DNA from: Muribaculaceae bacterium
GTDB taxonomy: Bacteria; Bacteroidota; Bacteroidia; Bacteroidales; Muribaculaceae
Assembly: GCA_017405965.1 (NCBI GenBank)
Contig: JAFQZK010000003.1
Coordinates: forward strand, 186,001 to 250,000
Direction: 5' to 3'
Length of the DNA stretch: 64,000 nucleotides
Shown here in pieces: positions 6,143-60,483 of the stretch. The first letter of the stretch is position 1, and every line of letters begins with the position of its first letter. The notes under the pieces are model-generated. The model did not search any database. It was given only the letters and a program-made list of their open reading frames with translations, and was not told where the DNA came from. Both the position numbers and the translations under genes were made by a program.

Positions 6143-8701
6143 ATGAAGAAATTCTTAATGACTCTGATGGCGTTGTTCATGGTCAGCGCGGCCATGGCAG
6201 ACAGCTATTTGTACATCGATCCGGTATCGATGACTCAAGACCAGCTGGCCGAAGGCAGCATCACCCTGCCGGTGAAGGCCCATTTCGAGGGGCGCGTGAG
6301 CGGCTTCCAGCTGGATATGACCTATCCCCAGGGCATTACTGCCGCTGGTTTTGAAAATGGCCCTGGCATGACCATCCCCTACATGAACAGTGCCGGCTTG
6401 GATAAGACGCAGGAGATCTCACTCTACTCGAATGAGGCCATGACGCGCATCGTCGCCGCATCCATGACCTACGGCTACTGGTATCCCGCAGATGGCACTA
6501 TCCAGAACTACGGCGTCATCAAGTGGGAGCCTGGCGACTACGAAGAAATGTTCTATCTCACCTTGAATGTCGCTCCTGACTTCGAGGGCGGTGACTTGAT
6601 TGTCGAGAGCACCGTCGGCGCGGGCGAGGATGCCCGTGGCGGCACGGTCACCGACCTGGGCCAGAGCGGCCAGGTCTATACCGCTGTGTGCTACATTGAG
6701 GTCATTCCTGACCCGATCGAGATTACCCCGATGCCCGAAATCATGTATTACTGTGATGATGAATTCTGCACGATCGAGGCTATCGGCGAGGGCGAGGTGC
6801 ATCTCTACATCGACGATATGGAAGTCGAGAATCCTTATATGATCAGCAGGCTCTACGGCCAGGACCAGACCTTTATTGCTGCCGCTACCGCTCAGCTCGA
6901 GGGCTGGATCATCAGCGAGGTGACCATGATGGAGGTAATTGTGCCCGGTCGCGAGAAGACGCCAGTACCCGCTCCTGTCCTCAACTATACCATTGAGGAA
7001 GACAGGGTAATTGTGAATATCGAGTGGCCCGAGAGTGACGGTAACCGCAAGCTGTATATCGATGGCTGGAGGTATGATGCCTCGGTCACCACCCACGAGA
7101 TCTATCGCATGGATGAGGATCAGGAAATCAGTATTGTGGCCTTTGTGCTCGAGGGCGCGACTTGTGCCGCAAGCGAGGTGCTTGATTATATGCTCTATGT
7201 TCCCGCTCTTGTACCGCTCTATGCGCCCGTTCCTGTTATCGAGATCACGTACAACGACGACGCTACGATCGTCACAGCGTCAGGTGAAGGTGAAATTCAT
7301 CTCTATATCGATGGCCAGGAAGTGGAGAATCCTTGTGTGCTGCCGCGTGGCGACGTGGAATACCAGGTCGAGGTAACGGCAATAGCTCGCATCGACGGTA
7401 TGATTGACGGCAGTTATTCGATGACGCTGATCGTGCCTGCCAAGGAGGTTGTGCCCAATCCCGAGCCCGGCTTCAGCCTGACCATGGCTGACGGTAAGAT
7501 TCTGCACGGCCAGAGCATCGTCATCCCCGTGTCGATGACCAACCCCGAGGCTGTGACCGCCTTCCAGACCGACCTGTACCTGCCCGAGGGCTTCGAGCTG
7601 CAGGATGTGGTAATGTCCGACCGCAAGGCCGACCATCAGCTGCTGACCAGCAACCGTGCCGACGGCAGTGTGCGTCTGCTGTGCTACTCGCCCACGCTCG
7701 ACACGTTCGAGGGCAACGAGGGTGAATTGTTCTACATCACCGTCAAGACCCCCGACAATGCGGCCGGCGATTACACCCTTGAACTGAAGAAGAACCTGTT
7801 CACGCTGGCGGACACCTATGATGAGGTGCACTGCGATGATAGCGACGCCACGCTCACTGTGATGGCCTACATCCTGGGCGACGTCAATGGCGACGGTGTC
7901 GTGACCGTGACCGATGTCGTGCTCACCGTGCAGCGTGTGCTTGACCTGAATCCCGATCCGTTCATCTTTGATGCTGCCGACGTGAACCGCGATGGCGACA
8001 TCACCGTGACCGACGTCGTGCTCATCGCCCGCATGGTGCTCTATCCCGAGTTGGTTGACATGATGCGTGCTCCTGCCCTTGGCGAGATCAACGATGCCAT
8101 GAGCGGCAACGCCATCGACATCCTGCCTGGCGAGACGCGCACCGTGACCATCGCCCTGGACAACGACATCGACTACACGGCATTCCAGCTCGATGTGCAG
8201 CTGCCCGACGGCATGACCGCCAGCAACTTCAGCCTGACTGACCGTGCCGGCAGCCACACCCTGAACACCAACATGATGGCCGACGGCAGTCAGCGCGTGA
8301 TGTGCTACTCGCCGATGCTGACCTCCATCGGCGGCAACGAGGGTGCTCTGCTCACCTTCGAGGTGACTGCAGCGGGCAGCGTGAGCGGTGACATCATGAT
8401 TGATGGTATCGAGATGGTGAGCGCAGCTTGCCAGACGGTTAACCTCGACAGCTTCACCATCCAGGTGAATGCCGGTGCCGCCACTGCCGTGAAGGAGATG
8501 ACTCAGGGCTTGCGCATCTACACCGACGGTAACAACATCATTGTCGAGAGCCCCGTCAGCCAGCGCATCATCATCAGCGATGTTGCCGGACGCTCCTACA
8601 GTGTTGACGTGACCGAGGGTCGCAACGTCATCCCTGCCCGCAACTCGGGTGTGGTGATTGTGACCGGTGGTGGCAAGACTGCTAAACTCATGATCAACTG
8701 A
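6143..8701 (+). CDS. Multi-cohesin-like scaffold protein with internal dockerin and T9SS-type C-terminal domain
   Basis: 852 aa from the ATG at 6143 (an upstream TTG at 6137 is less likely). Signal peptide 1-19. Cohesin-like module 1 at about 21-190; three short beta-sandwich repeats resembling chitobiase C-terminal domains at about 192-440 (recurring block HLYIDDMEVENP / HLYIDGQEVENP); cohesin-like module 2 at 442-575 (FQTDLYLPEGFEL); paired dockerin-type repeats at 579-636 (GDVNGDGVVTVTDVV, ADVNRDGDITVTDVV, with regular Asp/Asn calcium ligands); cohesin-like module 3 at 641-780; and a C-terminal domain at 786-852 (RIYTDGNNIIVES ... DVAGRSYSV ... GVVIVTGGG) of the type that directs T9SS export and surface attachment. 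Known: cohesins bind dockerins in clostridial cellulosomes. Inferred: this is a surface scaffold for dockerin-tagged neighbours. The 8718 gene follows after 16 nt, so the two are probably co-transcribed. Confidence 0.85.
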   Translation: MKKFLMTLMALFMVSAAMADSYLYIDPVSMTQDQLAEGSITLPVKAHFEGRVSGFQLDMTYPQGITAAGFENGPGMTIPYMNSAGLDKTQEISLYSNEAMTRIVAASMTYGYWYPADGTIQNYGVIKWEPGDYEEMFYLTLNVAPDFEGGDLIVESTVGAGEDARGGTVTDLGQSGQVYTAVCYIEVIPDPIEITPMPEIMYYCDDEFCTIEAIGEGEVHLYIDDMEVENPYMISRLYGQDQTFIAAATAQLEGWIISEVTMMEVIVPGREKTPVPAPVLNYTIEEDRVIVNIEWPESDGNRKLYIDGWRYDASVTTHEIYRMDEDQEISIVAFVLEGATCAASEVLDYMLYVPALVPLYAPVPVIEITYNDDATIVTASGEGEIHLYIDGQEVENPCVLPRGDVEYQVEVTAIARIDGMIDGSYSMTLIVPAKEVVPNPEPGFSLTMADGKILHGQSIVIPVSMTNPEAVTAFQTDLYLPEGFELQDVVMSDRKADHQLLTSNRADGSVRLLCYSPTLDTFEGNEGELFYITVKTPDNAAGDYTLELKKNLFTLADTYDEVHCDDSDATLTVMAYILGDVNGDGVVTVTDVVLTVQRVLDLNPDPFIFDAADVNRDGDITVTDVVLIARMVLYPELVDMMRAPALGEINDAMSGNAIDILPGETRTVTIALDNDIDYTAFQLDVQLPDGMTASNFSLTDRAGSHTLNTNMMADGSQRVMCYSPMLTSIGGNEGALLTFEVTAAGSVSGDIMIDGIEMVSAACQTVNLDSFTIQVNAGAATAVKEMTQGLRIYTDGNNIIVESPVSQRIIISDVAGRSYSVDVTEGRNVIPARNSGVVIVTGGGKTAKLMIN

Positions 8702-8717
8702 TAAAACCCTACAGACG

Positions 8718-9371
8718 ATGATTACCAGAAGTCTATTGTCTATCATTATGGTCGTTGCGGCAACCTTCGGTGCTGCCGCAACCGACCTCTTTCATATCGA
8801 GGATTTCAACATCGAGCCCGGACAGACGGTCCAGGTGGAAATCCTGTTGGATAACGAGGTGCAATACACTGCATTCCAGAGTGACCTCTATCTGCCCGAG
8901 GGACTTGCCCTCGAAGCGCAGTCGGTGGCGCTGACCGACCGTAAGGTTGACCACAGCATCGCCACCAGTGTGCTGGCCGACGGCGGCATCAGAATGATGT
9001 CCTACTCGATGTCGTTACAGCCCTACGGCGGCAACAGCGGTGCCCTGGTCACCTTCAGGGTCACTGCCGACGAGGCCTTTACCGGCCCCGTGACCATCCA
9101 GCTCAGGAACACCCGTTTCACCACCCTTCAGGGACGTGAAATCCCTTTTGAGAGCACCAGCTGCACGGTGAACGCTGTGGCGCTTGTCCAGCGTGGTGAC
9201 GTGAACGGAGACGGCCAGGTGAACGTCAGCGACGTTTCCATCTTGATCAACAACCTCATGAGCGGCAACGAAGCCGCTCTTAACCCTCAGGCAGCCGATC
9301 TCAACGGTGACGGCGGTGTGAACATCACCGACGTGTCGTTGCTGATCAACCTGATCATGAGTGCTGTGTAG
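8718..9371 (+). CDS. Small cohesin-like plus dockerin adaptor protein
   Basis: 217 aa. Signal peptide MITRSLLSIIMVVAATFGAAA (about 1-21), one cohesin-like beta-sandwich (about 23-155, FQSDLYLPEGLAL and ALTDRKVDHS, closely similar to modules 2 and 3 of the upstream scaffold), then paired dockerin repeats at 160-217 (GDVNGDGQVNVSDVSILIN, ADLNGDGGVNITDVSLLIN). There is no T9SS-type C-terminal domain. In clostridial cellulosomes a cohesin-plus-dockerin polypeptide acts as an adaptor scaffoldin; the same role is inferred here. It probably shares the scaffold's transcript. The strong similarity to the neighbour's modules suggests local duplication. Confidence 0.85.
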   Translation: MITRSLLSIIMVVAATFGAAATDLFHIEDFNIEPGQTVQVEILLDNEVQYTAFQSDLYLPEGLALEAQSVALTDRKVDHSIATSVLADGGIRMMSYSMSLQPYGGNSGALVTFRVTADEAFTGPVTIQLRNTRFTTLQGREIPFESTSCTVNAVALVQRGDVNGDGQVNVSDVSILINNLMSGNEAALNPQAADLNGDGGVNITDVSLLINLIMSAV

Positions 9372-9495
9372 CATCACTACATCATCCCTCGGGGGTATCG
9401 GCGATAGCGTCGGGGGGGTATTATATAAAAAAGTGTCTCACAACTGCTGAGCTTGCTAGGAACTATTAAACGACAATCTCTGGTATCATTGTCAA

Positions 9496-9532
9496 GACGA
9501 GGGCGCACGGTGTCCTGCCTGCGCCTCTCGTC
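9496..9532 (+). terminator. Hairpin between the adaptor and the first BspA gene
   Basis: GACGAGGGCGCA (9496-9507) pairs with TGCGCCTCTCGTC (9520-9532) with one bulged base, followed by AATTTTGAG, a weak U-tract. It may end the scaffold-adaptor transcript. It is the only strong structure in the 207-nt gap. Confidence 0.5.
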
Positions 9533-9578
9533 AATTTTGAGAAAAGTCGATGAGTATTAACATTAAAACGATGAAGAG

Positions 9579-11711
9579 ATGAAAAAACACCATTTTGCAA
9601 TTATGAGACGTGCAAACAGTTTGCTCATTGTTATGATGCTGTTTGTGGCGATTCTTGTTCCGGGCACAGCCCGTGCCTGGGATTTAACCTACAATGGACT
9701 CCATTTCGACATGATCGGGGACGACGAGGTGGAAGTGGTTTACTTGATGAACACTTATAGCTCCGGCTATGAGGGCAACATTGTCATCCCTGCCCAATTT
9801 GATTATTATGGCATGACCTTTCGGGTGACGTCGATCGGTGAGCGTGCATTTTATCGTTGCCCTGACCTCACCAGTATCGTGATACCGAATTCTGTAAGGA
9901 ATATCAAAAAGGAAGCTTTTGTGGATTGTGAAGCTATAACCACCCTCAACCTGCCCCCGTCGGTCGAGACGATTGAAGAGAGGGCTTTCATGTGGTGTGA
10001 CGGACTGACCACGCTCACGATTCCAAGCACGGTGCGGACGTTGGGTAAAGAAGCGTTCTTAGACTGCAGAAATCTGACCAGCGCAACCGTTGACGCTCAT
10101 GAGATTTGTGATCAAGCATTCCGTGGCTGCTCGGCATTGACCGATGTCTTTATCGGTGCAAATGTCGAAGTCATCGGGGTCGCGCCCTTCTCTAGCTGTT
10201 CCCAATTGAGTTCAATCACCGTCAATGGGAACAATCCCAACTATGATTCTCGCGGCAACTGCAATGCGATTATCGAGAAAGCATCACGCAGTTTGTGGCA
10301 AGGTAGCACCACGACCATCATCCCTGAGGACGTAGTGGCAATCGCCCCTCGGGCATTTTTCGGTATTCACGGACTTGCCGAAATCACCTTCCCGGCTTCG
10401 GTGACCCACATCGGTGAAGCAGCGTTTATCGGCTGTGTTTCAATGACCGAATTGACCATTCCCAATACCGTGCTGCAAGTGGACTCGGCCGCATTCATGG
10501 CATGTGACGGTTTACAGAGCATCACGTTGTCAGAATCCCTGACCGAAATCAGCTGTAATGTGTTTCGTGATTGTTCTGGGTTGACCGACGTTACTATTCC
10601 TGATGGCGTGACCCGTATTGGGAAGGATGCGTTTAGTATGGATGGTTTGACGAGTGTGACATTCGGCAATAGAGTGGCCGAAATCTGTGAAAATGCTTTC
10701 AGCTATAACAATATCACTGAACTGAATTTGCCGCCATCATTGAAGATCCTCGGCCCATATTCATTTGCTGACAATGAAATGGTCGATTTTGTTCTTCCCG
10801 ACTCACTGATTTCCATTGGCGAGTTTGCTTTTTCTAATTGCACGAAATTAGTTTCGGTCACTTTACCTCATTCTCTCACGACCATCAGCGATAAGGCTTT
10901 CTACTCATGTCCTTATTTGTCCGCTGTTGTGATACCTAATTCGGTGACCAATATTGAGGGTGTTCCATTCTATAACTGTTATAGGATGAGTTCCATAATA
11001 GTCGAGGAAGGTAATCCTGTCTATGATTCCCGAGACAACTGCAGAGCCATTATCGAGACAGCGACCAACACGTTGAAGCAAGGCTGCTCTTCGAGCATAA
11101 TTCCTTCAACAGTCGTTGCTATTGGCCCTCATGCCTTTAGCGGTCAATGGTTTATGACTACCATAGCCATCCCGGAATCGGTTAAAGAAATAGGTGCCTC
11201 GGCTTTCAATAGTTGCACGTATCTCCGGAAAGTCGTCGTCCCCGATTCGGTCGTTAAGATCGGGCAATACGCATTCAACTACTGTAACAGGCTGACAAGC
11301 GTTACCTTGGGTGCCGGACTCAATGAAATCGGCGAGAAATGTTTTTCTAATTGTAGCAGCCTTACTGATGTGACGTGCCGCGCCCAGGTGCCTCCCGCCT
11401 GTGTGTCAAATACATTCAACGACCTATACAGCAAGGCGACCTTGCACGTGTTGCGCCCCTCACTTGATGCCTACAGGGCTCACGAGGTTTGGAGCCTGTT
11501 CTCCAACATCGAGGCGCTGCCGGGAGCAGGCCCCGGTGACATGAACGGCGACGGCGAGTTCACGGTGAGCGACATCACGTTGCTCATCAACGCAGTCGTT
11601 GGGGCCGGTGAAAACGTCGAGTACAATCCCGATGCCGATGTGAACGGTGACGGTGACGTGAACATCACCGATGTCATCCAGCTCATCAACCAGATGATGT
11701 CAGCGCGTTGA
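9579..11711 (+). CDS. BspA-like leucine-rich repeat surface protein with C-terminal dockerin
   Basis: 710 aa. The N-terminal 33 residues form a long signal peptide (hydrophobic LLIVMMLFVAILV, then TARA). A short N-terminal cap (YNGLHFDMIGDDEVEVVYL) leads into about 20 LRR_5/BspA-type repeats (consensus TSIxIPNSVxxIGxxAFxxC) to about residue 625. Two repeats are extended by an insert starting NPxYDSRxNCxAIIE (near 220 and 482). Paired dockerin repeats close the protein at 652-710. BspA-type proteins of oral and gut Bacteroidales and Treponema bind host matrix proteins or other cells; that is known for characterised members and inferred here. The ATG at 9579 was kept; a second in-frame ATG at 9603 would shorten the signal n-region. 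No T9SS-type C-terminal domain is present. Confidence 0.88.
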   Translation: MKKHHFAIMRRANSLLIVMMLFVAILVPGTARAWDLTYNGLHFDMIGDDEVEVVYLMNTYSSGYEGNIVIPAQFDYYGMTFRVTSIGERAFYRCPDLTSIVIPNSVRNIKKEAFVDCEAITTLNLPPSVETIEERAFMWCDGLTTLTIPSTVRTLGKEAFLDCRNLTSATVDAHEICDQAFRGCSALTDVFIGANVEVIGVAPFSSCSQLSSITVNGNNPNYDSRGNCNAIIEKASRSLWQGSTTTIIPEDVVAIAPRAFFGIHGLAEITFPASVTHIGEAAFIGCVSMTELTIPNTVLQVDSAAFMACDGLQSITLSESLTEISCNVFRDCSGLTDVTIPDGVTRIGKDAFSMDGLTSVTFGNRVAEICENAFSYNNITELNLPPSLKILGPYSFADNEMVDFVLPDSLISIGEFAFSNCTKLVSVTLPHSLTTISDKAFYSCPYLSAVVIPNSVTNIEGVPFYNCYRMSSIIVEEGNPVYDSRDNCRAIIETATNTLKQGCSSSIIPSTVVAIGPHAFSGQWFMTTIAIPESVKEIGASAFNSCTYLRKVVVPDSVVKIGQYAFNYCNRLTSVTLGAGLNEIGEKCFSNCSSLTDVTCRAQVPPACVSNTFNDLYSKATLHVLRPSLDAYRAHEVWSLFSNIEALPGAGPGDMNGDGEFTVSDITLLINAVVGAGENVEYNPDADVNGDGDVNITDVIQLINQMMSAR

Positions 11712-11745
11712 GACACAACGCAGTTCTCTTTACCCCTGTATTCTA

Positions 11746-11794
11746 AAAAAGAACGGTGTGCCGACCACGATGGTGGCACACCGTTCTTTTTTTT
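11746..11794 (+). terminator. Intrinsic terminator after the first BspA gene
   Basis: GAACGGTGTGCC (11751-11762) pairs perfectly with GGCACACCGTTC (11775-11786), followed by eight T. An A-run upstream makes it potentially bidirectional. Confidence 0.92.
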
Positions 11795-11829
11795 GAGGCA
11801 GATAACTCTCGGACCTCGTCGTCGCTCAA

Positions 11830-11870
11830 AGTGTCAAAAAATTAGACACTAAGGTGTCAAAAAATTAGAC
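11830..11870 (+). promoter_or_regulatory. Tandem AGTGTC-N9-GACACT boxes, copy 2
   Basis: An exact AGTGTC-N9-GACACT dyad at 11830-11850 is followed 23 nt later by a second, slightly degenerate copy (GTGTC-N8-GAC at 11854-11870). The core and spacing are the same as at 5831-5874. It ends 26 nt before the -33 element of the C10 protease promoter. Confidence 0.6.
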
Positions 11871-11896
11871 GATTGCGATAAAAGACGCTTGCATCT

Positions 11897-11928
11897 ATTG
11901 GTCGGGGCAATATCATTGATTAAGTTTG
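11897..11928 (+). promoter_or_regulatory. Promoter for the C10 protease gene
   Basis: ATTG at 11897-11900, 20 nt, then TAAGTTTG at 11921-11928, a good TAnnTTTG. The start codon follows 84 nt downstream. Confidence 0.7.
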
Positions 11929-12012
11929 TAAACAGAATCAGTGTGCCTGAACGGCAGGCTGTTACTCAAACGGTAATCGCCTAATTATTAATCTAAAAAT
12001 ACATTGAGAAAG

Positions 12013-14649
12013 ATGAAAAAGAGAACATTCTACCTGACTATCGTGATGGTGCTCACTGTGGTGATGAGCGCCCTGGCGTCCCCCGTTGACGAGGCCGCTG
12101 CCCGCCTTGCTGCCATGCAGGAGCTTAACAATTTGTCGGGCAAGCCCGGCTTCCGTTCTGGCCTGCCCGCAGGCAATCTGCAGCTGTTGCGTGCCGAACC
12201 CAGCGATGTGATGACAGGCCAGGCAGCCTATTTTATCTATAATACCGACAACGCCTTTGTCGTGGTCGCCGGTGATGACCGTGCAGGCATTCTGGCCCAT
12301 GGCAGCGCTCCGTTGGATATGAACCGCATCCCTTGCGGCCTGCAATGGCTGCTCGAGATGTACAAGGGCGACGTGGACTTCCTGCTGGCGCATCCCCAAC
12401 TGAATATCGCAGCTCCTGTTCTGGGCTCGGGCACAAGTGTGGCCCCGTTGTTGACCACCCAATGGGGCCAGGGTAATCCTTACAACAACGATTGCCCTGT
12501 CTATAGAGGTGCAACGTGTGTGACAGGCTGTGCTTGCACTTCGCTGACTCAGGTCATCAACTTTTGGCGCTTTGCCAATATCACGTCACCTATCGAGGCC
12601 TATACCACTTCGACTCTGGGCATCTATCTTGAGGAACTGCCGCCTGCCGACTTTGAGTGGGACCAAATGATCGAGAACTATTACTATATGCCCTTTAACG
12701 ATGTTCAGGCCGCCGCTGTAGCTAAACTGATGCGCTATGTGGGCCAGGCCGAGCATATGGATTACGCCCCCGACGGTAGCGGTGCCACTGGCAGTGATAT
12801 CTTGCGAGCCGCTTTGATTTTTGGCTATGACGAGGGTGTGGCGCTCTTGGACAAGGCGAACTTCCTTGCCGACCAGTGGACAGGTATCTTGCAGGCTGAG
12901 TTGCAGGCCGGTCGCCCTGTCGTGTACATTGGCCATGACAAATACTCCGGTGGCGGCCATGCTTTCAATGTGGACGGCTATGATGCCGAGAGCGGCCTCT
13001 ACCATGTGAACTTCGGATGGGACGGTGATGGCGACAACTACTGTGCCTTGAATGATTTCTCGGCCTACGGCCGCACCTATTCCAATTTCCAGTCGATGCT
13101 TATTGGCATCCAGCCCCCCGATAACGTTGAAACCGCAGTTACTTTGGCTCCCTCGTCGCTATTGTTCAACAGCCAGCCGGGCAATCGTGTAATCAAGTCG
13201 TTCACTGTCAAGGGCAGTGCCTTGCAGGGTAACCTGTCACTGGCGCTTGACGACCCGACGGGCTCCTATGCCATCAACAAGACCACCCTCACTGCCGGTG
13301 AGGCATCCGAGATGGCCACCGTGCAGGTGACTTACAATCCTGCCGATGTGGGTGTGCATAATGCCAGCGTGATCATCAGCGGTGGCGGCATTGAGCCGCA
13401 GACGGTGAGCCTGAGCGGCTTTGCTGTTGATGTGACCCCGACCATTGAAGTCGAGCCGGCTTCGTTGTCGCTTGAAACAACGGCGGGCGAGACCGTGACA
13501 TCGACTTTTACGGTCAAGGGCATGAACCTTACCTCTGGATTGACGCTTGCGCTCAATGGTGACAGTGAAGACTTCGCCATCGACAAGTCGTTCGTCTCGG
13601 TCGTTGCGGCTGCAGGAATTGCCACTGTAACGGTAACCTACGCGCCTGCCGAAGTGGGCGAGTCCGATGCTACAGTGACTGTTAGCGGTGGCGGCGCCGA
13701 GACAAAGACGGTGACGCTGCACGGAATTGCCAACGAGCCTGCTGCTCCCGCTCAGCCTGGCTTCACGCTGGATTGTGACCAGGTGGACTTCGGCTACGGT
13801 TTCAACGGCTATGGTGAGAACCGCAAGATTATGCTCACGGGTGAGGGACTCACCGGCAATCTCACCTTGAATCTGGTGGGTGGTGACAGTATCCATTTCA
13901 GCGTCAGCCCCAGCACCATCACTCCCGAGATGGCCGCCCAAGGCGTAGAAATCAACCTGCGGTTCTTCCCCTACAACGTGGGACGACTCAACACCCGCCT
14001 GGTCATTTCCAGCCCTGATGTCGCTGACAAGGTAGTGCTTCTCACTGGCTATGGCATCAAGACCGGCGCCTATCTCTACCCGAGCGCCGATTCCTTGAGT
14101 TTTGAGACCTCAGTGGGCGGTACTGCCCTCCAGACCGTCGGGGTACTCAAGAAGAACTTTGATGGCTGGATTGCTGCACCTGGCCCAAATCATGCCCCCG
14201 GCAGCATGGATCCTGTCTTACCTGTAGTTCTCACTTCGGTGTTCTGCAATATCGAGGGTGATGAAGAAGGCAATTTCAGCATCGTTTCAACTAACGTGAC
14301 CCAGAGTTCAACGGGCTGCGACAGCGTGATTTTCACCATCAGCTATACTCCCCTGGAGGCGGGCACTCACACGGCCAATCTTGTTTTCTCGACGATGATA
14401 TTGAACAACCGTTATCCCGCTTATCCTGTCACGATACCCATCACGGGTGTCACAACTGGCGGCAATGTCGCTGGTGACATGAACGGTGACGGCCAGTTGA
14501 CGGTGAGCGATGTGATTCTGCTCATCAATGACCTCATCAACGCCAATCGCATGACGACGGTCAACCCGGTTGCCGACGTGAACTGCGACGGCGATGTGAA
14601 CATCACCGATGTCGTCAAACTAATCGACGCTGTGATGCGCGCCGAGTGA
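12013..14649 (+). CDS. C10 (streptopain-like) cysteine protease with Ig-like repeats and dockerin
   Basis: 878 aa from the ATG at 12013 (an upstream TTG at 12004 is less likely). Signal peptide 1-23; an inhibitory Spi/C10 propeptide-like region (about 24-130); C10 peptidase domain (about 145-370) with the nucleophile block CVTGCACTSLTQ, predicted Cys173, and the histidine block GGGHAFNVDGY, predicted His316, then HVNFGWDGDGDNY. Three to four HYDIN/choice-of-anchor-D Ig-like domains follow (about 375-810), each ending near VSGGG or a variant, then paired dockerin repeats at about 820-878. SpeB, PrtT and B. fragilis Bfp proteases belong to this family and are secreted papain-fold proteases activated by propeptide removal. 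Both catalytic residues are present, so it is probably active. Transcription is likely controlled through the tandem boxes upstream. Confidence 0.9.
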   Translation: MKKRTFYLTIVMVLTVVMSALASPVDEAAARLAAMQELNNLSGKPGFRSGLPAGNLQLLRAEPSDVMTGQAAYFIYNTDNAFVVVAGDDRAGILAHGSAPLDMNRIPCGLQWLLEMYKGDVDFLLAHPQLNIAAPVLGSGTSVAPLLTTQWGQGNPYNNDCPVYRGATCVTGCACTSLTQVINFWRFANITSPIEAYTTSTLGIYLEELPPADFEWDQMIENYYYMPFNDVQAAAVAKLMRYVGQAEHMDYAPDGSGATGSDILRAALIFGYDEGVALLDKANFLADQWTGILQAELQAGRPVVYIGHDKYSGGGHAFNVDGYDAESGLYHVNFGWDGDGDNYCALNDFSAYGRTYSNFQSMLIGIQPPDNVETAVTLAPSSLLFNSQPGNRVIKSFTVKGSALQGNLSLALDDPTGSYAINKTTLTAGEASEMATVQVTYNPADVGVHNASVIISGGGIEPQTVSLSGFAVDVTPTIEVEPASLSLETTAGETVTSTFTVKGMNLTSGLTLALNGDSEDFAIDKSFVSVVAAAGIATVTVTYAPAEVGESDATVTVSGGGAETKTVTLHGIANEPAAPAQPGFTLDCDQVDFGYGFNGYGENRKIMLTGEGLTGNLTLNLVGGDSIHFSVSPSTITPEMAAQGVEINLRFFPYNVGRLNTRLVISSPDVADKVVLLTGYGIKTGAYLYPSADSLSFETSVGGTALQTVGVLKKNFDGWIAAPGPNHAPGSMDPVLPVVLTSVFCNIEGDEEGNFSIVSTNVTQSSTGCDSVIFTISYTPLEAGTHTANLVFSTMILNNRYPAYPVTIPITGVTTGGNVAGDMNGDGQLTVSDVILLINDLINANRMTTVNPVADVNCDGDVNITDVVKLIDAVMRAE

Positions 14650-14726
14650 ACGACTTGGTGAGGATTTCAACGGCATGCATGTGATTCAAAGAAATAAGTC
14701 ATATTGAATAAGAAACAATCTGTCAG

Positions 14727-14758
14727 TTTGATTCTTGCAGTGATTTTGATTAAATTTG
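14727..14758 (+). promoter_or_regulatory. Promoter for the large BspA gene
   Basis: TTTG at 14727-14730, 20 nt, then TAAATTTG at 14751-14758. The -7 region (TTGATTAAATTTGCAA) is almost the same as that of the protease promoter (TTGATTAAGTTTGTAA). Confidence 0.8.
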
Positions 14759-14841
14759 CAACCTGATGAGTGCCGATCAATAAATGACAAGGCTTATCTA
14801 TCTTGGACATTAACAATATATAAACATTAAAACAAAGGCTT

Positions 14842-17800
14842 ATGAAACAACGACTAAATTTGATGTGCCGAGTGGCGTTACTGTTACTGGCGCTGTTGCC
14901 GGTGGCACTATCGCTCCAAGCCCAGGATACTTTCTGGGTGAACGGCATCCGTTATTCAATTGACTACGAGGATGAGTACTATTGGGGCACCCCCGATATC
15001 ATCACCCTGAGGGTGATTTCGGCAACGGGCAGCACGACCTATAGCGGCGAGATCGTCATTCCTGAAACGGTCAAGGTGAACGTGTCGCGTTACGAAGGTT
15101 CGTACTATGGCGGTAACTATGATATGTTCTGCCAGGTCACGGCCATTGGTGAAGGTGCCTTCCGCAATTGCACCGGCTTGACAGCAGTCCAGCTCCCCAA
15201 GAGCATCAAGACCATCGGCAAGAATGCCTTCTACGGCTGCTCGGGTTTGAATGAATTAACTATTCCCAACGGCGTGAGTAGCATCGGAGAACAGGCTTTT
15301 GCTTATTGCACAGGTCTGACATCAATGACGTTACCCAACTCGGTGACCTCGTTGGGATGGAACGCGTTTTACTCGTGTACAGGACTGAGCAACGTGACGC
15401 TCTCCAAGAGTTTGACCAGCCTTAATGGCACCTTCGTGGGCTGCACGGGCCTGACTACGGTGTCGATTCCCGCCGGTGTGCAGTCGCTCAACACCACGTT
15501 CAACGGCTGTACGGCATTGACGACGGTGCAGTTGCCTCGATCGCTTAAATCGATTGAAGAAGCAGCGTTTGACGGTTGCACTTCACTGGCGAGCATCTAT
15601 CTGCCCGAAGGCGTGGATTACATCGGCAAACGGGCTTTCCGAAACACGGCTTTGACGTCAGTGGAACTGCCGAGCCGTGTGTCTAATGTGTTCGATAATG
15701 CCTTTGAGGGCTGCTCGCAGTTGACCTCGGTCACGAGTCGCAACCTCACGCCGCCTGTAATGGCCAACAGCGCAATCTTTGACGGCGAGACCTATGGCAC
15801 TGCAGCGCTTTATGTCCCTGCCGTGGCTGTTACCCAGTACAGCGGCGCCGACTGGTGGAAACTGTTTGAGAACATCGAGGGCCAGGCCGCACTCGATACC
15901 CACTACGACTTTGAAGCCGGTGGCATCTACTACCTGATTACCGGCAGCAATACCGTTGAGGTGACCTACAAGGACACGAATTATAACAGCTATAGCGGCA
16001 ATGTGACCATCCCTGCCAGCGTGACCTACAACGGCGTGACCTATAGCGTTACCGCCATCGGTACCTATGCCTTCAACAAATGCACGGGTCTGACCTCAAT
16101 CGCGATGCCGGCCACCATCACCAGCATCGGCAGTTTTGCCTTTAATGGCTGCAATGGATTGACATCACTCAACCTCCCCGAGTCGCTTGCTGCCATCGGC
16201 GAGAGGGCATTCATGGACTGCTTGGGCGTGACCTCGTTGACCATCCCTGAAAATGTCACGAGCATCGGTGAATATGCGTTTTCCGGCATCAGAAACCTGA
16301 CGTCCCTCACCTGGAACGCCCGCGAGTGCTGGACCAACGGCAACATGATCACCAGTGGCATCGCTACGTTGACCATCGGCGACGAGGTGGTTGTGATTCC
16401 AGGAAATCTGGCCTATGTCTCTGTCATCACAACATTGGATATTCCGCAGTCGGTGAAGTTTATTGGTCAGGACGCTTTCAATGGCTGTAATGGCTTGACA
16501 TCGCTGACGATTCCCCAGAATGTGATTGATATAGGCACTAATGCCTTTGCAAACATCAACAACTTGACCTCGCTCGTGTGGAACGCCCGCGAGTGCTGGA
16601 CCAACGGCAATATGCCCACCTATCGTATCAATACGTTGACTATCGGCGATGGTGTCAAGATATTACCCTCCTATCTGGCCAGGAACTCCAAGATCACAAC
16701 ACTGTCGATTCCTGAAAGTGCAACTGTCATTGGCGCATACGCTTTCGAACAATGCAGCGGCTTGACCAGTGTGGTCATTCCTGACAATGTCACCTTCATT
16801 GGTAAAAGCGCTTTCTACAGTTGCTATAATGTGGCAGACCTCACATTGGGCAAGTCGGTGACGACGATCGATGCCTACGCCTTCATGGGTTGCCTCATGA
16901 GCACGCTCACGTGGAATGCGCGCAACCTCAGCCTGGATGATTCAGGCGAGTATAATAATCAGTACGATTATTATCACACGATAGAGAAGCCTACTGTTTT
17001 TGATTTCTCAACGGTGTCGCAGTTAACCATCGGTAACGAGGTGGAGCAATTGCCCAACTATTTCGCCTATCAATCCAATGTGAGGACTGTGGAGATTCCG
17101 AATTCGGTCACTGCTATCGGTGATTATGCCTTTGCCGAATGCGACTTGTTGACCGATGTCACGCTGCCGGCAGGCCTCATCACTATCGGTGAAAGTGCAT
17201 TCGAGAGCTGTGAGAATTTGGCGCATGCCGACTTGCCTGCCTCGTTGACAACGCTAGGTGCCCGCGCTTTTTATGGCTGTGATGACCTCACCAGCCTTGT
17301 CGTGCCGGCTTCACTCACCTCGTTCGGCAAGCGGGCATTCAACCAGTGTTTGGGCTTGGAAACCATCGTTGTCGATAGCGAGAACCCCGTGTATGATAGC
17401 CGCGAGAACTGCAATATCATGTTCAAGACCGCCAACGACAGCATCATGTTGATGGGTAAGAATGCAGTGCTGCCCAGCTCGCTGACGGCCATCCCCGACT
17501 CGGCCTTCTATGGCCATACCGAGATTACCCACATGGAGATTCCTGCATCGGTTAAAAGGATCGGCAAAGATGCATTCAACGGATGTTCTAACCTGACTTT
17601 TGTCACGCTTCCCTATGGGTTGACACAGATGGGTGATCGTGTATTCTACGGTTGCAGAAAACTGACTTCGGTCACGCTGCCGCCTGCACTGACTCAGATC
17701 GGTGAATGTGCATTCATGCTGTGCACTCAACTGAATTCTGTCACAATTCCTGCTTCGTTGACTCAAATCGGCAATCGTGCATTCTCCAATTGTAGTGCTC

Positions 17801-19386
17801 TGCAGTCGATCACTGTCGAGAACGGTAATCCGGTTTATGATTCACGTGGCAACTGCAACGCCATTATCGAAACTGCCAGCAACACCTTGACCGAAGGCTG
17901 CCTTTCGACGGTGATCCCGTCCTCGGTGAAGACCATCGGTCAGTATGCTTTCCAAGGCCGCTCGCCGTCCAATGTCACGATACCTGCAGGTGTTGAGACC
18001 ATAGCCAGTTATGCATTTTACCAGTGTGACGTTGAGAATGTCTCTTTTGGTGAAACACTCAAGTCTGTCGGTTATTATGCTTTTGGCGGCTGTGACAATT
18101 TGATGACGCTTTCCCTCGGCAATTCGGTTGAGACCATTGGTGATTATGCTTTCAGCGGTTGCGAGAAATTGATGAATATCGATTTTGGTCATTCGCTGGT
18201 ATCAATCGGCAATTATGCTTTCAGGAACTCTATCAGTACTGTTTATAGTGACAATCCTTCAATCTTCGTCGATGTTAACGGTGAAATGTTCATGCTTGTT
18301 CAATATGAAGGATACGATGACTATTACTATACACCCATCTATAACAATTATGACGGTTGGTATTGGTACCATAACTGGTACGGAGAGGAAATTTGGATCT
18401 CTGAAGAAGAACTGAATGAATTGATGAATGTCTCAGGAACGGTTACGATTACCTTACCTGAGTCATTGAAGACCATCGGCAGGTACGCTTTCTATGAATG
18501 CGAGGGACTGAGAAGCGTTGTGATGGCTCCGAACTCAGTGACATCTATTGGTGAAAGCGCATTCAGTCAGTGCCGAGGTATCGAGAGCATTGTCATTCCC
18601 GAGTCCCTCAAGACCGTGGACTATGGTGCCTTCACCGGTTGCAACATTGATACGGTTTGCATCAGTGACCTTGGGGCATGGTGTGACATCAACTTCTGGA
18701 ATTCTAATAGTAATCCCGTTAACGGAAGTGAAGGTCTGTATCTGAACGGCGAAAAGATTGTCGATCTTGTGATCCCCGTTGGTGTGAGCGCCGTCAAGAA
18801 AGAAGCATTTGCCGGCTACAAGGGATTGAATAGCGCAACGATCGCCAACTCGGTCAAGAGCATCGGATACAATGCATTTAATGGTTGCCAGAATTTGAAG
18901 CGTGTGGACATCGGTGACTCAGTGGATTCGATTGCCAGCTATTCGTTCCCGTATTGCACTAGTCTGGATACTGTCAGCCTGGGTCGCTCAATGAGGTTCA
19001 TTGGCTACATGTCGTTCTATAACGCTCCCATCGAGAGCCTGACTTCCTTGGCAACAACGCCCCCTGTCGTTGAGAGCTACAATCCTTTCACTTGCTATAC
19101 GACTGCCACCTTGCGTGTGCCGATGGCTTCGGTCGAGGCTTATAGGGCCGCCGATATCTGGAAGAAGTTCACTTACGTCGAGGGTATTCCCGGTGGTGGT
19201 CCCGGTGACATGAACGGTGACGGCGAGTTCAGCGTCAGTGACATCACGATGCTCATCAATCTCATCATGGGTGCCGGTGAGGAAGGAATCGATGATAATG
19301 TCATGGCCGATGTGAACGGTGATGGCACCGTCAACATCAGCGACATCGTTATGCTCATCGAAATGGTTCTCAAATCGACCAGATAG
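14842..19386 (+). CDS. Giant BspA-like LRR surface protein with C-terminal dockerin
   Basis: 1514 aa. Signal peptide about 1-28 (MKQRLNLMCRVALLLLALLPVALSLQAQ). Two BspA blocks each open with a cap (YSIDYEDEYYWGTPD near 35; YYLITGSNTVEVTYKD near 367), showing internal duplication. More than 40 LRR_5 repeats follow (TSIGEYAFSGC-type). Distinct inserts include a recurring WNARECWTNGNM block (near 490 and 585) and the NPVYDSRxNCN insert (near 850 and 992). Residues about 1135-1185 form a low-complexity, Tyr/Trp/Asp-rich loop. Paired dockerin repeats end the protein (about 1454-1514). It is probably a cell-surface adhesin; ligands cannot be told from sequence. It has its own promoter at 14727-14758 and a terminator at 19420-19460. 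Confidence 0.9.
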   Translation: MKQRLNLMCRVALLLLALLPVALSLQAQDTFWVNGIRYSIDYEDEYYWGTPDIITLRVISATGSTTYSGEIVIPETVKVNVSRYEGSYYGGNYDMFCQVTAIGEGAFRNCTGLTAVQLPKSIKTIGKNAFYGCSGLNELTIPNGVSSIGEQAFAYCTGLTSMTLPNSVTSLGWNAFYSCTGLSNVTLSKSLTSLNGTFVGCTGLTTVSIPAGVQSLNTTFNGCTALTTVQLPRSLKSIEEAAFDGCTSLASIYLPEGVDYIGKRAFRNTALTSVELPSRVSNVFDNAFEGCSQLTSVTSRNLTPPVMANSAIFDGETYGTAALYVPAVAVTQYSGADWWKLFENIEGQAALDTHYDFEAGGIYYLITGSNTVEVTYKDTNYNSYSGNVTIPASVTYNGVTYSVTAIGTYAFNKCTGLTSIAMPATITSIGSFAFNGCNGLTSLNLPESLAAIGERAFMDCLGVTSLTIPENVTSIGEYAFSGIRNLTSLTWNARECWTNGNMITSGIATLTIGDEVVVIPGNLAYVSVITTLDIPQSVKFIGQDAFNGCNGLTSLTIPQNVIDIGTNAFANINNLTSLVWNARECWTNGNMPTYRINTLTIGDGVKILPSYLARNSKITTLSIPESATVIGAYAFEQCSGLTSVVIPDNVTFIGKSAFYSCYNVADLTLGKSVTTIDAYAFMGCLMSTLTWNARNLSLDDSGEYNNQYDYYHTIEKPTVFDFSTVSQLTIGNEVEQLPNYFAYQSNVRTVEIPNSVTAIGDYAFAECDLLTDVTLPAGLITIGESAFESCENLAHADLPASLTTLGARAFYGCDDLTSLVVPASLTSFGKRAFNQCLGLETIVVDSENPVYDSRENCNIMFKTANDSIMLMGKNAVLPSSLTAIPDSAFYGHTEITHMEIPASVKRIGKDAFNGCSNLTFVTLPYGLTQMGDRVFYGCRKLTSVTLPPALTQIGECAFMLCTQLNSVTIPASLTQIGNRAFSNCSALQSITVENGNPVYDSRGNCNAIIETASNTLTEGCLSTVIPSSVKTIGQYAFQGRSPSNVTIPAGVETIASYAFYQCDVENVSFGETLKSVGYYAFGGCDNLMTLSLGNSVETIGDYAFSGCEKLMNIDFGHSLVSIGNYAFRNSISTVYSDNPSIFVDVNGEMFMLVQYEGYDDYYYTPIYNNYDGWYWYHNWYGEEIWISEEELNELMNVSGTVTITLPESLKTIGRYAFYECEGLRSVVMAPNSVTSIGESAFSQCRGIESIVIPESLKTVDYGAFTGCNIDTVCISDLGAWCDINFWNSNSNPVNGSEGLYLNGEKIVDLVIPVGVSAVKKEAFAGYKGLNSATIANSVKSIGYNAFNGCQNLKRVDIGDSVDSIASYSFPYCTSLDTVSLGRSMRFIGYMSFYNAPIESLTSLATTPPVVESYNPFTCYTTATLRVPMASVEAYRAADIWKKFTYVEGIPGGGPGDMNGDGEFSVSDITMLINLIMGAGEEGIDDNVMADVNGDGTVNISDIVMLIEMVLKSTR

Positions 19387-19419
19387 AGATAAGGCCTATC
19401 CGAGATCCAATGCAAGAAT

Positions 19420-19460
19420 GAAGGTGCGTCGACCATGACGCGCGACGCACCTTCGTTTCC
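19420..19460 (+). terminator. Intrinsic terminator after the giant BspA gene
   Basis: GAAGGTGCGTCG (19420-19431) pairs perfectly with CGACGCACCTTC (19443-19454), followed by GTTTCCTTG. The stem shares the GGTGCGTC/GACGCACC core with the leader terminator at 6021-6065. Confidence 0.8.
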
Positions 19461-19514
19461 TTGACCTGAAAGGGTGAATAAAGCACTTGAGCGAATGATA
19501 TTCTGGATGATGGT

Positions 19515-19546
19515 ATTGCTCAAGTGAAACAAAAACGCTAATTTTG
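19515..19546 (+). promoter_or_regulatory. Promoter for the Ig-like dockerin protein
   Basis: ATTG at 19515-19518, 20 nt, then TAATTTTG at 19539-19546, 36 nt before the start codon. Confidence 0.7.
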
Positions 19547-19582
19547 CATTTTATTAATGACCAACTGTAAAATTCTGAAACA

Positions 19583-20500
19583 ATGATGAGAATAAGACTT
19601 TTTTTCGTGGCCGCCCTGCTCCTGGCTATGCTGCAGGGTTGGGCTGCTCCCGCAGTGATAAACGTGAATGTCGGGGAATTGGACTTCGGCAATCTTGAGG
19701 TGGGCTACCCGGTGACCAAGTCGTTTATGGTATCGGGCACCAATCTCCAGGGCGACATCAATCTGGCAATCGAGTCACGGCACGACTTTTACTATGAAGT
19801 CACCCCCGAGACCATCACGCCCGAGGAGGCTGCTGGCGGTGCCGTCGTGAGGTTGAAATGCCTTCCCATTTCAGATTACCTGCATGGTGCAACCCTCCGG
19901 TTGACCAGTCAGGATGCCGAGGATGTCCTCATCCCGATTACAGCCACGGCCTACTATCCCGATATGTTCGTGAACAATCGTGCCGAGAACTTCACGGCTT
20001 TTGCCGGGGGATTCAGTAGGCGCACCGGCGTTGTCCGTTTTGCCGATGCCGAGATTCCGCCCACTCCTGGTACCGACCCCGTGTTGAGAGCTGTACACGT
20101 TGATTATATCGTGCCCGACTACTATTCGATCAGTGTCGAGGGTGCTGATGCCTCCCAATTTGGGGCCCGAATCGTGAGAGGCAGCTTCCTCACCAACATC
20201 TGTACTGTCGAGATTACTTATGTTCCTCGCTGTATCGGCACCCATTCGGCGACGCTCAAGCTCTATTGCAGCCGTGCAGGAGTCCCCCAGGTCACCATTC
20301 CGCTCAGGGGCGAGGCTGCCGAGGTGCTGGGTGACTTGAACGGTGACGGTGTTCTGGGTGTAGGTGACGTGACTGGCTTTATCAACCTGATGCTCAGCAA
20401 TGGCGAGATTCCCTCGCGCGTCGACCTTGACAGCAACGGTTCGATTGACATCAGCGACATCACCATCCTGGTCAACCGCTTGCTTAACGCTGCCGAGTGA
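19583..20500 (+). CDS. Secreted Ig-like (choice-of-anchor D) protein with dockerin
   Basis: 305 aa. Signal peptide MMRIRLFFVAALLLAMLQGWAA (about 1-22). Residues 24-120 form an ASH/HYDIN-like Ig fold (LDFGNLEVGYPVTKSFMV) like those in the neighbouring protease, and residues 125-240 a second beta-sandwich ending in CIGTHSATLKLYCS. The dockerin pair at 249-305 is divergent: GDLNGDGVLGVGDVTGFIN is intact, while the second repeat reads DLDSNGSIDISDITILVN. There is no catalytic domain and no T9SS-type C-terminal domain. It may be a spacer or binding subunit of the same surface assembly; that is inference. It is monocistronic, with its own promoter and a terminator at 20535-20570. Confidence 0.82.
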   Translation: MMRIRLFFVAALLLAMLQGWAAPAVINVNVGELDFGNLEVGYPVTKSFMVSGTNLQGDINLAIESRHDFYYEVTPETITPEEAAGGAVVRLKCLPISDYLHGATLRLTSQDAEDVLIPITATAYYPDMFVNNRAENFTAFAGGFSRRTGVVRFADAEIPPTPGTDPVLRAVHVDYIVPDYYSISVEGADASQFGARIVRGSFLTNICTVEITYVPRCIGTHSATLKLYCSRAGVPQVTIPLRGEAAEVLGDLNGDGVLGVGDVTGFINLMLSNGEIPSRVDLDSNGSIDISDITILVNRLLNAAE

Positions 20501-30099: not shown

Positions 30100-30106
30100 T
30101 GAAGTA

Positions 30107-31096: not shown

Positions 31097-31100
31097 GAAT

Positions 31101-32543: not shown

Positions 32544-32610
32544 TCCACATTATTATAATAACTAAGAGAGAACAAATCATCACACTCATTTTTTCATAGT
32601 TCAAGCAACA

Positions 32611-33594: not shown

Positions 33595-33657
33595 CGCCAC
33601 AACCAAAACCCGATATTTGACATCAATCCTATTTTAACCGATAGAGAGAAACAATAG

Positions 33658-35250: not shown

Positions 35251-35287
35251 TCCCAATTGAAAAGATCATAAAGCAATAAACCAGAAT

Positions 35288-56962: not shown

Positions 56963-56991
56963 TTTGGGCATGATTTTTTATAGTATCTTTG
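56963..56991 (+). promoter_or_regulatory. Promoter of the B12 uptake operon
   Basis: TATCTTTG at 56984-56991 is a good -7 element; the nearest TTTG (56963-56966) gives a short 17-nt spacer. The riboswitch starts about 10 nt downstream. Confidence 0.7.
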
Positions 56992-57000
56992 CAGCGAGAT

Positions 57001-57200
57001 TTGGTGCCTGAGGGTGTTTCCTCGGGTGAAAAGGGAACCGGGTGAGAATCCCGGACAGACGGTGCTGCTGTGTGCTCCCGTTACTGATACCCCGCACCAG
57101 GCCACTGCGCGATTTTCCCGACAGCAAGGGACAGCGTGGGAAGGGCTGGTTGCAAACAATTGGGGTAGGGGCGAGTCAGAAGACCTGCCAAGTCGCAAAC
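57001..57200 (+). promoter_or_regulatory. Cobalamin riboswitch
   Basis: Conserved parts are in order: GGGAACCGGGTGAGAATCCC (about 57040-57059), GCCACTG (about 57102-57108), and the B12 box variant AGTCAGAAGACCTGCC (about 57174-57189). The box ends about 25 nt before the btuB-like start codon. Known: such aptamers bind adenosylcobalamin and lower expression of B12 uptake genes; here the short distance suggests control of translation initiation. Confidence 0.95.
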
Positions 57201-57216
57201 ATAGAAACCCGTGACA

Positions 57217-60467: not shown

Positions 60468-60483
60468 TTAACACAATAGGATT

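What the first reader, a model, noticed from the sequence alone, without database searches (positions are those of the whole stretch)
6143..20500. Candidate cohesin-dockerin surface assembly in a Bacteroidales genome
Six adjacent genes encode secreted proteins with paired dockerin-type repeats; two also carry cohesin-like modules (three in the 6143 protein, one in the 8718 protein). Four more dockerin proteins lie elsewhere in the window (22144, 39849, 60484, 61782). Seen: the repeats with regular Asp/Asn calcium ligands and the beta-sandwich modules. Known: cohesin-dockerin pairs build clostridial cellulosomes. Inferred: a cellulosome-like complex whose clients are LRR adhesins, a C10 protease, a CotH kinase and a B12-locus protein rather than cellulases.
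Basis: partly seen in the sequence, partly recalled or inferred. Interest (0 to 1): 0.85.

Follow-up and report, generated by a model that had tools for sequence, protein, structure and literature searches.

The report
Bacteroidales cohesin–dockerin surface display system
A bacterium whose nearest relatives come from the rumen seems to dress its surface by plug and socket: over a hundred secreted proteins, few of them recognisable as fibre-degrading enzymes, carry a dockerin plug, and a few proteins carry cohesin sockets that are easily overlooked because their sequences have drifted.

Summary
All ten named proteins carry Pfam dockerins above cut-off. The beta-sandwiches are cohesins: all 50 listed Foldseek rows for module 442-575 are cohesin entries, and a wider family profile finds PDB cohesins by sequence. 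The N-terminal third module is probable.

The system is genome-wide: 153 dockerin matches against 14 cohesin modules in ten proteins. 125 of 149 dockerin frames end at the dockerin. Of 75 uncut cohesin ORFs, here and in relatives, 25 end in a dockerin and 48 in tails that match or resemble type IX secretion (T9SS) sorting tails. A T9SS operon lies in the window. Some relatives have scaffoldins with 5-10 cohesins. Few client domains seen are glycoside hydrolases.

A 2020 rumen catalogue left open whether Bacteroidetes lack cohesins or have unrecognisable ones (PMC7260996); this supports the second. Not shown: binding, T9SS dependence of the window scaffoldin, and how tail-less dockerin proteins cross the outer membrane. 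New variant of a known kind.

The parts
6143..8701 (+). Scaffoldin: signal peptide, N-terminal cohesin-like module, repeats of unknown fold, Coh1, internal dockerin, Coh2, C-terminal tail (852 aa)
6200..6730 (+). N-terminal cohesin-like module (residues 20-196), less certain
   Evidence: AF2 pLDDT 75.1; 16 of 24 PDB matches at E<=0.001 are cohesins, best E 3.7e-5
7466..7867 (+). Cohesin module Coh1 (residues 442-575)
   Evidence: AF2 pLDDT 90.2; all 50 listed PDB rows are cohesin entries
7874..8041 (+). Internal dockerin of the scaffoldin (residues 578-633), a class distinct from client dockerins
   Evidence: Pfam 39 bits; class signature; 0 amino-acid changes in 65 codons against L063
8063..8482 (+). 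Cohesin module Coh2 (residues 641-780)
   Evidence: 31% identical to Coh1; groups with the Coh2 of relatives
8483..8698 (+). C-terminal tail, read as a T9SS-type sorting tail
   Evidence: DUF6383 below cut-off (20.8 bits against 23.7); no NCBIfam match; 71 of 72 residues as in L063, dN/dS 0.03
8718..9371 (+). Adaptor: one cohesin plus C-terminal dockerin (217 aa)
8784..9182 (+). Cohesin module of the adaptor (residues 23-155)
   Evidence: 35% identical to Coh1; adaptor group in the tree
9195..9356 (+). Dockerin of the adaptor
   Evidence: Pfam 56.8 bits
9579..11711 (+). Client: LRR_5 (BspA-type) protein with C-terminal dockerin 11532-11696
12013..14649 (+). Client: C10 peptidase with Inhibitor_I69 propeptide and C-terminal dockerin 14470-14631
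14842..19386 (+). Client: long LRR_5 protein with C-terminal dockerin 19201-19371
19583..20500 (+). Client: weakly matched Ig-like (HYDIN-type, below cut-off) protein with C-terminal dockerin 20327-20485
22144..23757 (+). Client: CotH protein with N-terminal dockerin 22234-22401
39849..41924 (+). Client: LRR_4 protein with C-terminal dockerin 41748-41909; start uncertain
60484..61695 (+). Client in the B12 locus with C-terminal dockerin 61537-61686
61782..63866 (-). Client with sub-threshold DUF4394 and Cleaved_Adhesin matches, C-terminal dockerin 61791-61943
29341..36475 (+). T9SS core operon PorT, PorP, PorK, PorL, PorM, PorN: likely export route of the scaffoldin, not proven
   Evidence: NCBIfam matches above cut-off for all six

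Best explanation
This is a cohesin-dockerin surface-assembly system of Bacteroidales. Shown here: the genome has 153 dockerin matches, in about 150 frames that mostly have a Sec-type signal peptide and mostly end at the dockerin, and 14 cohesin modules in ten proteins, seven ending in tails and three being small cohesin-dockerin adaptors. Inferred: the tails are T9SS sorting tails, so the cohesin proteins are exported by T9SS and anchored on the outer surface, as anchoring scaffoldins. Client proteins (LRR proteins, C10, M6 and S8 peptidases, CotH proteins, nucleases, a few glycoside hydrolases) plug their calcium-loaded dockerin into those cohesins, directly or through an adaptor, so one small anchor set displays a large exchangeable repertoire. 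The internal dockerin between Coh1 and Coh2 has a different signature and probably pairs with another partner, possibly another scaffoldin. How tail-less dockerin proteins cross the outer membrane is open.
For: Fold: all 50 listed Foldseek rows are cohesin entries. Sequence: Pfam Cohesin in 18 of 42 family modules at E<=0.01; PDB cohesins from E 6.9e-7 with the 42-row profile. Dockerins: 10 of 10 in the window, 153 matches in the genome, two calcium loops in 137 of 149 frames, C-terminal in 125 of 149, signal peptide by one and the same heuristic in 121 of 122 complete frames against 41 of 55 control ORFs. Division of tags: of 83 cohesin ORFs, 25 end in a dockerin, 30 in my tail profiles, 20 in neither (18 of these look like Por tails by eye), 8 are cut. 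Of 40 matches of one tail type, 3 share a frame with one of the 150 listed dockerins, and all three are scaffoldins. Co-occurrence p=7e-6. The pair Coh-Doc-Coh-tail plus Coh-Doc recurs; Coh1, Coh2 and adaptor cohesins cluster by position (23 label changes against 91.8 in shuffles). Purifying selection: dN/dS 0.21 for the scaffoldin, 0.20 for the adaptor. T9SS core operon in the window and a full-length SprA in the genome.
Against: No binding shown. 41 of 54 dockerin-bearing genomes have no recognised cohesin; of 12 of them searched again with the wider profile, 2 gave weak matches and 10 none, among these the dockerin-rich G085, G105, G108 and G097. The window scaffoldin's tail has no NCBIfam match, and profile comparison with confirmed Por tails found no support. 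Clients have no outer-membrane export signal that I recognise. With the narrower nine-row profile, no PDB cohesin was found by sequence. One client dockerin (12004 ORF) is not well conserved against L063 (83% identity, dN/dS 0.64).
Confidence: 0.76

Rival explanations
1. The dockerin is itself a sorting or anchoring tag read by the secretion machinery or by a non-cohesin receptor; the cohesins serve only a few proteins.
For: 125 of 149 dockerins sit at the extreme C-terminus, where T9SS tails sit; 41 of 54 dockerin-bearing genomes have no recognised cohesin, including four with 13 to 40 scored matches.
Against: Cohesins and dockerins co-occur; dockerins also occur N-terminally (22144 protein) and between cohesins; in the four cohesin-less dockerin-rich genomes most listed matches start at profile position 8 or later, so they may be another repeat (by eye).
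Confidence: 0.12
2. The dockerin repeats are calcium-stabilised C-terminal caps without a partner.
For: No binding data; calcium-loop aspartates are the most conserved feature.
Against: Client and adaptor dockerins share conserved non-ligand positions (T or N, L, I, N or D after the loop), and internal dockerins differ at the same positions, as expected of recognition surfaces; cohesins are conserved alongside.
Confidence: 0.07
3. The beta-sandwich modules are carbohydrate-binding or adhesin domains, not cohesins.
For: Pfam Cohesin is below cut-off in the window and absent in the adaptor; the narrow profile finds no PDB cohesin.
Against: All 50 listed fold rows are cohesin entries; the wider profile retrieves PDB cohesins and 18 of 42 modules match Pfam Cohesin at E<=0.01.
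Confidence: 0.03
4. It is a true cellulosome for plant fibre.
For: 24 of the 28 named loci carry ruminant or RUG isolate names; a few glycoside hydrolase domains among clients (GH53, alpha-amylase, GH32, GHL10).
Against: The commonest domains of 122 complete frames are LRR, peptidase and CotH families; no cellulase family appears among the 25 of 50 and 25 of 41 families shown, and each family not shown matches one member at most.
Confidence: 0.02

Closest known systems
Clostridial and ruminococcal cellulosome (CipA, R. flavefaciens ScaA-E; recalled)
   Same: Cohesin fold, paired F-hand dockerins, multi-cohesin scaffoldins in relatives, a single-cohesin-plus-dockerin adaptor resembling ScaC (recalled)
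   Different: Gram-negative host; apparent T9SS-type tails instead of SLH or sortase anchors (recalled); few glycoside hydrolases among the client domains seen; cohesins mostly below the Pfam cut-off
R. bromii amylosome and R. albus type (category iv in PMC6118326: many dockerins, few cohesins; passages seen)
   Same: Large dockerin-to-cohesin ratio; cohesins may anchor single proteins at the surface
   Different: Different phylum, anchor and client set
Non-cellulosomal cohesins: A. fulgidus 2xdh, C. perfringens NagJ 2jh2
   Same: Among the closest solved folds and sequences; not fibre-related
   Different: Few cohesins and dockerins per genome (recalled) against 14 cohesins and 153 dockerin matches here
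Dockerins of rumen Bacteroidetes MAGs without recognised cohesins (PMC7260996, PMC7480376, PMC9863278; passages seen)
   Same: Same phylum and habitat; the dockerin side of the system
   Different: Those papers report no recognisable cohesin (PMC7260996) or an undefined role (PMC7480376); PMC9863278 reports Prevotella with both, and Muribaculaceae C941 with dockerins only
T9SS cargo with C-terminal sorting domain (TIGR04183)
   Same: 16 of 50 cohesin-protein ends match it; T9SS is present
   Different: Dockerin clients mostly end in the dockerin instead (125 of 149)

Membership tests
Cohesin domain (PF00963 superfamily) | Cohesin beta-sandwich fold | tested here: met
   AF2 pLDDT 90.2; all 50 listed PDB rows are cohesin entries, TM up to 0.83
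Cohesin domain (PF00963 superfamily) | Score above the Pfam gathering cut-off | tested here: not met
   Window: 17.7 bits in the whole protein, 21.1 for the module alone, against 24.1; own genome: 2 sub-threshold matches. Best family member E 2e-8
Cohesin domain (PF00963 superfamily) | Binds a dockerin | not testable with these tools
   No complex prediction or assay available
Dockerin type I (PF00404) | Above the curated cut-off, with paired 12-residue calcium loops | tested here: met
   10 of 10 above cut-off; two loops in 137 of 149 frames, one in 11, none in 1
Scaffoldin | Cohesin(s) on a non-catalytic secreted protein with a cell-surface anchor | tested here: inconclusive
   Cohesins and signal peptide met; the tail looks T9SS-like but has no NCBIfam match in the window protein; a relative's scaffoldin passes TIGR04183 (L218: 38.3 bits against 23)
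Adaptor scaffoldin (ScaC type, recalled) | Single cohesin plus dockerin | tested here: met
   8718 protein; 21 cohesins of such small Coh-Doc ORFs are in the tree
Cellulosome | Dockerin clients are mainly cellulases and hemicellulases | tested here: not met
   LRR_5 31, C10 10, CotH 10, M6 7, S8 5 of 122 complete frames; no cellulase family among those shown (25 of 50 and 25 of 41 families shown)
T9SS type A cargo (TIGR04183), window scaffoldin | Por_Secre_tail match | tested here: not met
   No match up to E 10; DUF6383 below cut-off
T9SS type A cargo (TIGR04183), cohesin proteins here and in relatives | Por_Secre_tail match | tested here: inconclusive
   16 of 50 non-dockerin ends match at E<=0.01, 34 do not; of the ends scanned singly, L218 is above cut-off, L067 and L224 below it, L058, L059, L056 and L089 have none

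The most novel reading that the evidence does not exclude
Two-tier secretion by adaptor: dockerin clients have only a Sec signal. They fold in the periplasm, dock onto tail-bearing cohesin proteins, and ride through the T9SS pore as a complex, so the dockerin replaces the T9SS sorting tail in more than a hundred proteins and a small set of cohesin carriers decides what is displayed.
Probability: 0.22. Interest if true: 0.92.

Novelty: new variant of a known kind. Interest (0 to 1): 0.74.

Why it matters
Dockerins without cohesins in rumen Bacteroidetes have been an open puzzle: PMC7260996 wrote that either cohesins are not needed or they are too diverged to recognise. Here are diverged cohesins in the same kind of genome, many on proteins that look T9SS-exported, together with adaptors and multi-cohesin scaffoldins. 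That makes the question directly testable with small recombinant modules, extends cohesin-dockerin assembly to a Gram-negative lineage whose recognised clients are mostly not fibrolytic, and offers a new source of cohesin-dockerin pairs. It also raises a concrete question about protein export: how more than a hundred tail-less proteins reach the surface, if they do.

Tried and rejected
Rejected: carbohydrate-binding domains (fold and sequence matches are cohesins); cellulosome in the strict sense (client domains); local gene cluster only (genome-wide). Tried without use: the nine-row profile against PDB sequences found no cohesin, the 42-row profile did; SprA across the order is nearly universal (140 of 148), so it cannot discriminate; profile comparisons of the tails with Por tails gave no support; TIGR04183 in the own genome gave only 7 matches, so most tails here are not that model. 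Dockerin-rich genomes without cohesins stay unexplained.

Limits: in the own genome 150 of 153 dockerin matches were listed and 150 of 322 first-look candidates scored; some matches are halves of one dockerin. Three of the ten window dockerins (12004, 19583, 60484 ORFs) are not among the 149 frames analysed (one search lists seven window frames), so totals lean low and the 149 lean to strong matches. Of 149 frames, 27 that ran off a fetched stretch were left out of the 122 complete ones. The dockerin profile used 145 of 149. Dockerin counts per genome were capped at 40 scored, and relatives are not independent samples. The signal-peptide test is a hydrophobicity heuristic of mine; the start of each dockerin frame was chosen in its favour. 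Under the same any-start rule 41 of 55 controls pass; a stricter rule gives 121 of 122 against 25 of 55, but there only the dockerin starts had been pre-chosen, so the contrast is softer than that number. The tail profiles were built from tails of the own-genome cohesin proteins themselves, so those seven match by construction; of the seven, only the C37:40590 tail was found by a later profile that did not contain it, and the C37:38584 and C21:121595 proteins' tails were not found. 18 of 20 unmatched ends were judged by eye. The client set holds all 149 own frames, scaffoldins and adaptors included.
Full report
1. The observation. Pfam Dockerin_1 lies above its curated cut-off in 10 of 10 (lowest 25.4 bits against 22.9). 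Pfam Cohesin gives only a sub-threshold match in the 6143 protein and none in the 8718 protein. The two clear modules of the 6143 protein and the one of the 8718 protein align over their length (31% and 35% identity to the first).

2. Are they cohesins? AlphaFold2 models module 442-575 with mean pLDDT 90.2 and pTM 0.83 from a three-row alignment. Foldseek against the PDB gives 130 matches at E<=0.001, and all 50 rows shown are cohesins or cohesin complexes, led by the non-cellulosomal cohesin of Archaeoglobus fulgidus (2xdh, E 5.4e-10) and a Clostridium acetobutylicum cohesin (6kgc, TM 0.83). By sequence, a nine-row profile finds no PDB cohesin, but a 42-row profile of the wider family finds R. 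flavefaciens ScaB cohesin 5 at 6.9e-7, the C. perfringens NagJ cohesin and 2xdh near 1e-4; the first 11 of its 23 rows are cohesins, and some of the weak rest are not. 18 of the 42 modules match Pfam Cohesin at E<=0.01. The N-terminal module of the 6143 protein (residues 20-196) has a weaker model (pLDDT 75.1); 16 of its 24 PDB matches at E<=0.001 are cohesins, the best five among them.

3. The whole genome. The window lies in a 3.6 Mb, 96% complete genome. Dockerin_1 has 153 matches there, with 150 of 322 first-look candidates scored. The profile of the window cohesins finds 14 modules, in ten proteins: four with Coh-Doc-Coh-tail (the window, C31, C4, C24), two with Doc-Coh-tail (C37), one Coh-tail (C21:121595) and three small Coh-Doc adaptors (window, C31, C4). 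At the window, C31 and C4 the adaptor gene directly follows the scaffoldin gene (window). Pfam Cohesin itself finds only two sub-threshold places in this genome, which shows how such cohesins escape annotation.

4. The clients. The 150 listed dockerin matches lie in 149 frames; 125 end within 15 residues of the dockerin match, 10 are cut by the fetched stretch and 14 go on for more than 15 residues. Two canonical calcium loops are present in 137 of 149; three loop aspartates are invariant in 145 of 145 aligned. By a hydrophobicity heuristic with free choice of start, 121 of 122 complete frames have a signal peptide (118 plus 3 possible lipoproteins), against 41 of 55 control ORFs under the same rule. 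Pfam domains of the 122 (which include five scaffoldins and three adaptors): LRR_5 in 31, Peptidase_C10 in 10, CotH in 10, Peptidase_M6 in 7, Peptidase_S8 in 5, Endonuclease_1 in at least 3, alpha-amylase in 3, GHL10 in at least 2, GH53 and GH32 in at least 1 each (25 of 50 and 25 of 41 families are shown, the others match one member at most). No cellulase family is among those shown.

5. Relatives. The genome-contig scan returned 28 loci. Their titles name Prevotellaceae, Muribaculaceae, Bacteroidaceae, Porphyromonadaceae, Bacteroidales or (one) just a bacterium; 24 of 28 carry RUG or ruminant isolate names. The nearest, RUG278, is 93% identical in Coh1. Scaffoldin-adaptor pairs recur there. 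In other families of the order there are larger scaffoldins: frames with 8, 5 and 7 cohesins in G003 and 10 in G043. Across 148 genomes of the order, 54 have a dockerin match and 14 a cohesin match; 13 of the 14 cohesin genomes have dockerins, against 41 of the 134 others (Fisher p=7e-6; without the own genome 12 of 13, p=2e-5). Relatedness is not corrected for. In the own family 36 of 118 genomes have cohesins, among them at least 11 of the own genus, the own genome included (62 no-match rows not shown). Against the reading: 41 dockerin genomes have no recognised cohesin. I searched 12 of these again with the wider profile: G035 and G140 gave weak matches (best E 3.7e-4), ten gave none, among them G085, G105, G108 and G097 with 13 to 40 scored dockerin matches.

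6. Classes and selection. In a tree of 154 cohesin modules, first, second and adaptor cohesins cluster by position (23 label changes, 91.8 in shuffles; few columns, 37 of 151 inner branches open). Internal dockerins of scaffoldins differ from the others at the positions after the calcium loop and have a conserved N-P-x-P-F-like linker, while adaptor dockerins resemble clients. This suggests at least two recognition classes; specificity is inferred. Against RUG278, dN/dS is 0.21 for the scaffoldin and 0.20 for the adaptor. The internal dockerin has no amino-acid change in 65 codons and the tail 71 of 72 identical residues. The 9579 client is only 62% identical in total while its last 60 residues are 98% identical; the 12004 client's last 60 are less conserved (83%, dN/dS 0.64) than its whole (90%).

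7. Anchor and export. Of 83 cohesin ORFs, 8 run off the sequence, 25 end in a dockerin, 30 end in one of two tail profiles and 20 in neither; 18 of these 20 look like Por tails by eye, L073:7248-8750 and L079:683-2065 do not. The tail profiles were built from the own-genome tails, so those match by construction. TIGR04183 (T9SS sorting domain) matches 16 of the 50 non-dockerin ends at E<=0.01, Pfam Por_Secre_tail 7 and DUF6383 12. The window scaffoldin's own tail has no NCBIfam match and only a sub-threshold DUF6383 match; profile comparisons with confirmed Por tails gave no support. The second tail type has 40 matches in the own genome, of which 3 share a frame with a listed dockerin, all scaffoldins: tail and dockerin look like alternative C-terminal tags. 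T9SS is present: PorT, PorP, PorK, PorL, PorM and PorN at 29341-36475 of the window and a full-length SprA. That the scaffoldin is T9SS cargo is likely but not proven. Dockerin clients have no outer-membrane export signal that I recognise, which leaves carriage with a cohesin protein, direct recognition of the dockerin, or a route that I do not see.

8. Relation to the literature (passages seen, not whole papers). PMC7260996: Bacteroidetes MAGs with dockerins but no recognisable cohesin, role unclear, cohesins perhaps too diverged; only about 24% of rumen dockerin proteins carry a CAZyme domain. PMC7480376: dockerins in Prevotella MAGs, role not defined. PMC6071333: cohesins found in certain species of Bacteroidetes. 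PMC9863278: Prevotella with dockerins and cohesins, Muribaculaceae C941 with dockerins but no cohesin. PMC6118326: category of many dockerins and few cohesins. PMC5831590: no cohesins or dockerins in its Bacteroidetes genome, T9SS cellulases instead. Ten searches of the held library listed no paper that, by its title or the start of its abstract, describes T9SS-tailed cohesin scaffoldins in Bacteroidales. Most of these lists were cut (for example 30 of 99 and 25 of 41 papers), and the library lacks most subscription papers, so this is weak evidence of absence. Cohesins in some Bacteroidetes have been reported before; the architecture, scale and tags described here I did not find.

9. Verdict. 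The finding is real and larger than reported: a new variant of a known kind. Binding and export are the two steps to test.

Noticed in passing
window 29341-36475: T9SS core operon PorT-PorP-PorK-PorL-PorM-PorN in the same window as the scaffoldin.
   Followed up: yes
window 56985-61695: Cobalamin riboswitch, BtuB-like TonB receptor, DUF5074 protein and a dockerin-tailed protein: a B12 uptake locus one of whose proteins carries the display tag.
   Followed up: partly
window 39849: The dockerin LRR protein starts with what looks like a cut signal peptide; true start upstream or a frameshift.
   Followed up: no
L186, L178 (own genome C33:157012-160476, C31:55747-59211): Two endonuclease-like proteins carry a dockerin and, after it, a T9SS-like tail, unlike the other clients. 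L186's tail is just above the TIGR04183 cut-off (24 bits) and below it (18.4 bits); L178's is by eye.
   Followed up: partly
own genome, 40 places listed: A tail of about 48 residues, consensus YFNLAGQQ..GVT.VVTTYTDGT...K, on about 40 proteins; the one tested has no NCBIfam match: a possible undescribed sorting tail.
   Followed up: partly
G085, G105, G108, G097: Dockerin-rich Bacteroidales without any recognised cohesin, with listed matches mostly starting at profile position 8 or later.
   Followed up: partly
L079:683-2065: A cohesin-dockerin protein fused to a sulfatase-modifying-factor-like domain.
   Followed up: no
own genome C35:28226-29599: A SprA fragment with an internal TGA besides the full-length gene on C34.
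   Followed up: no
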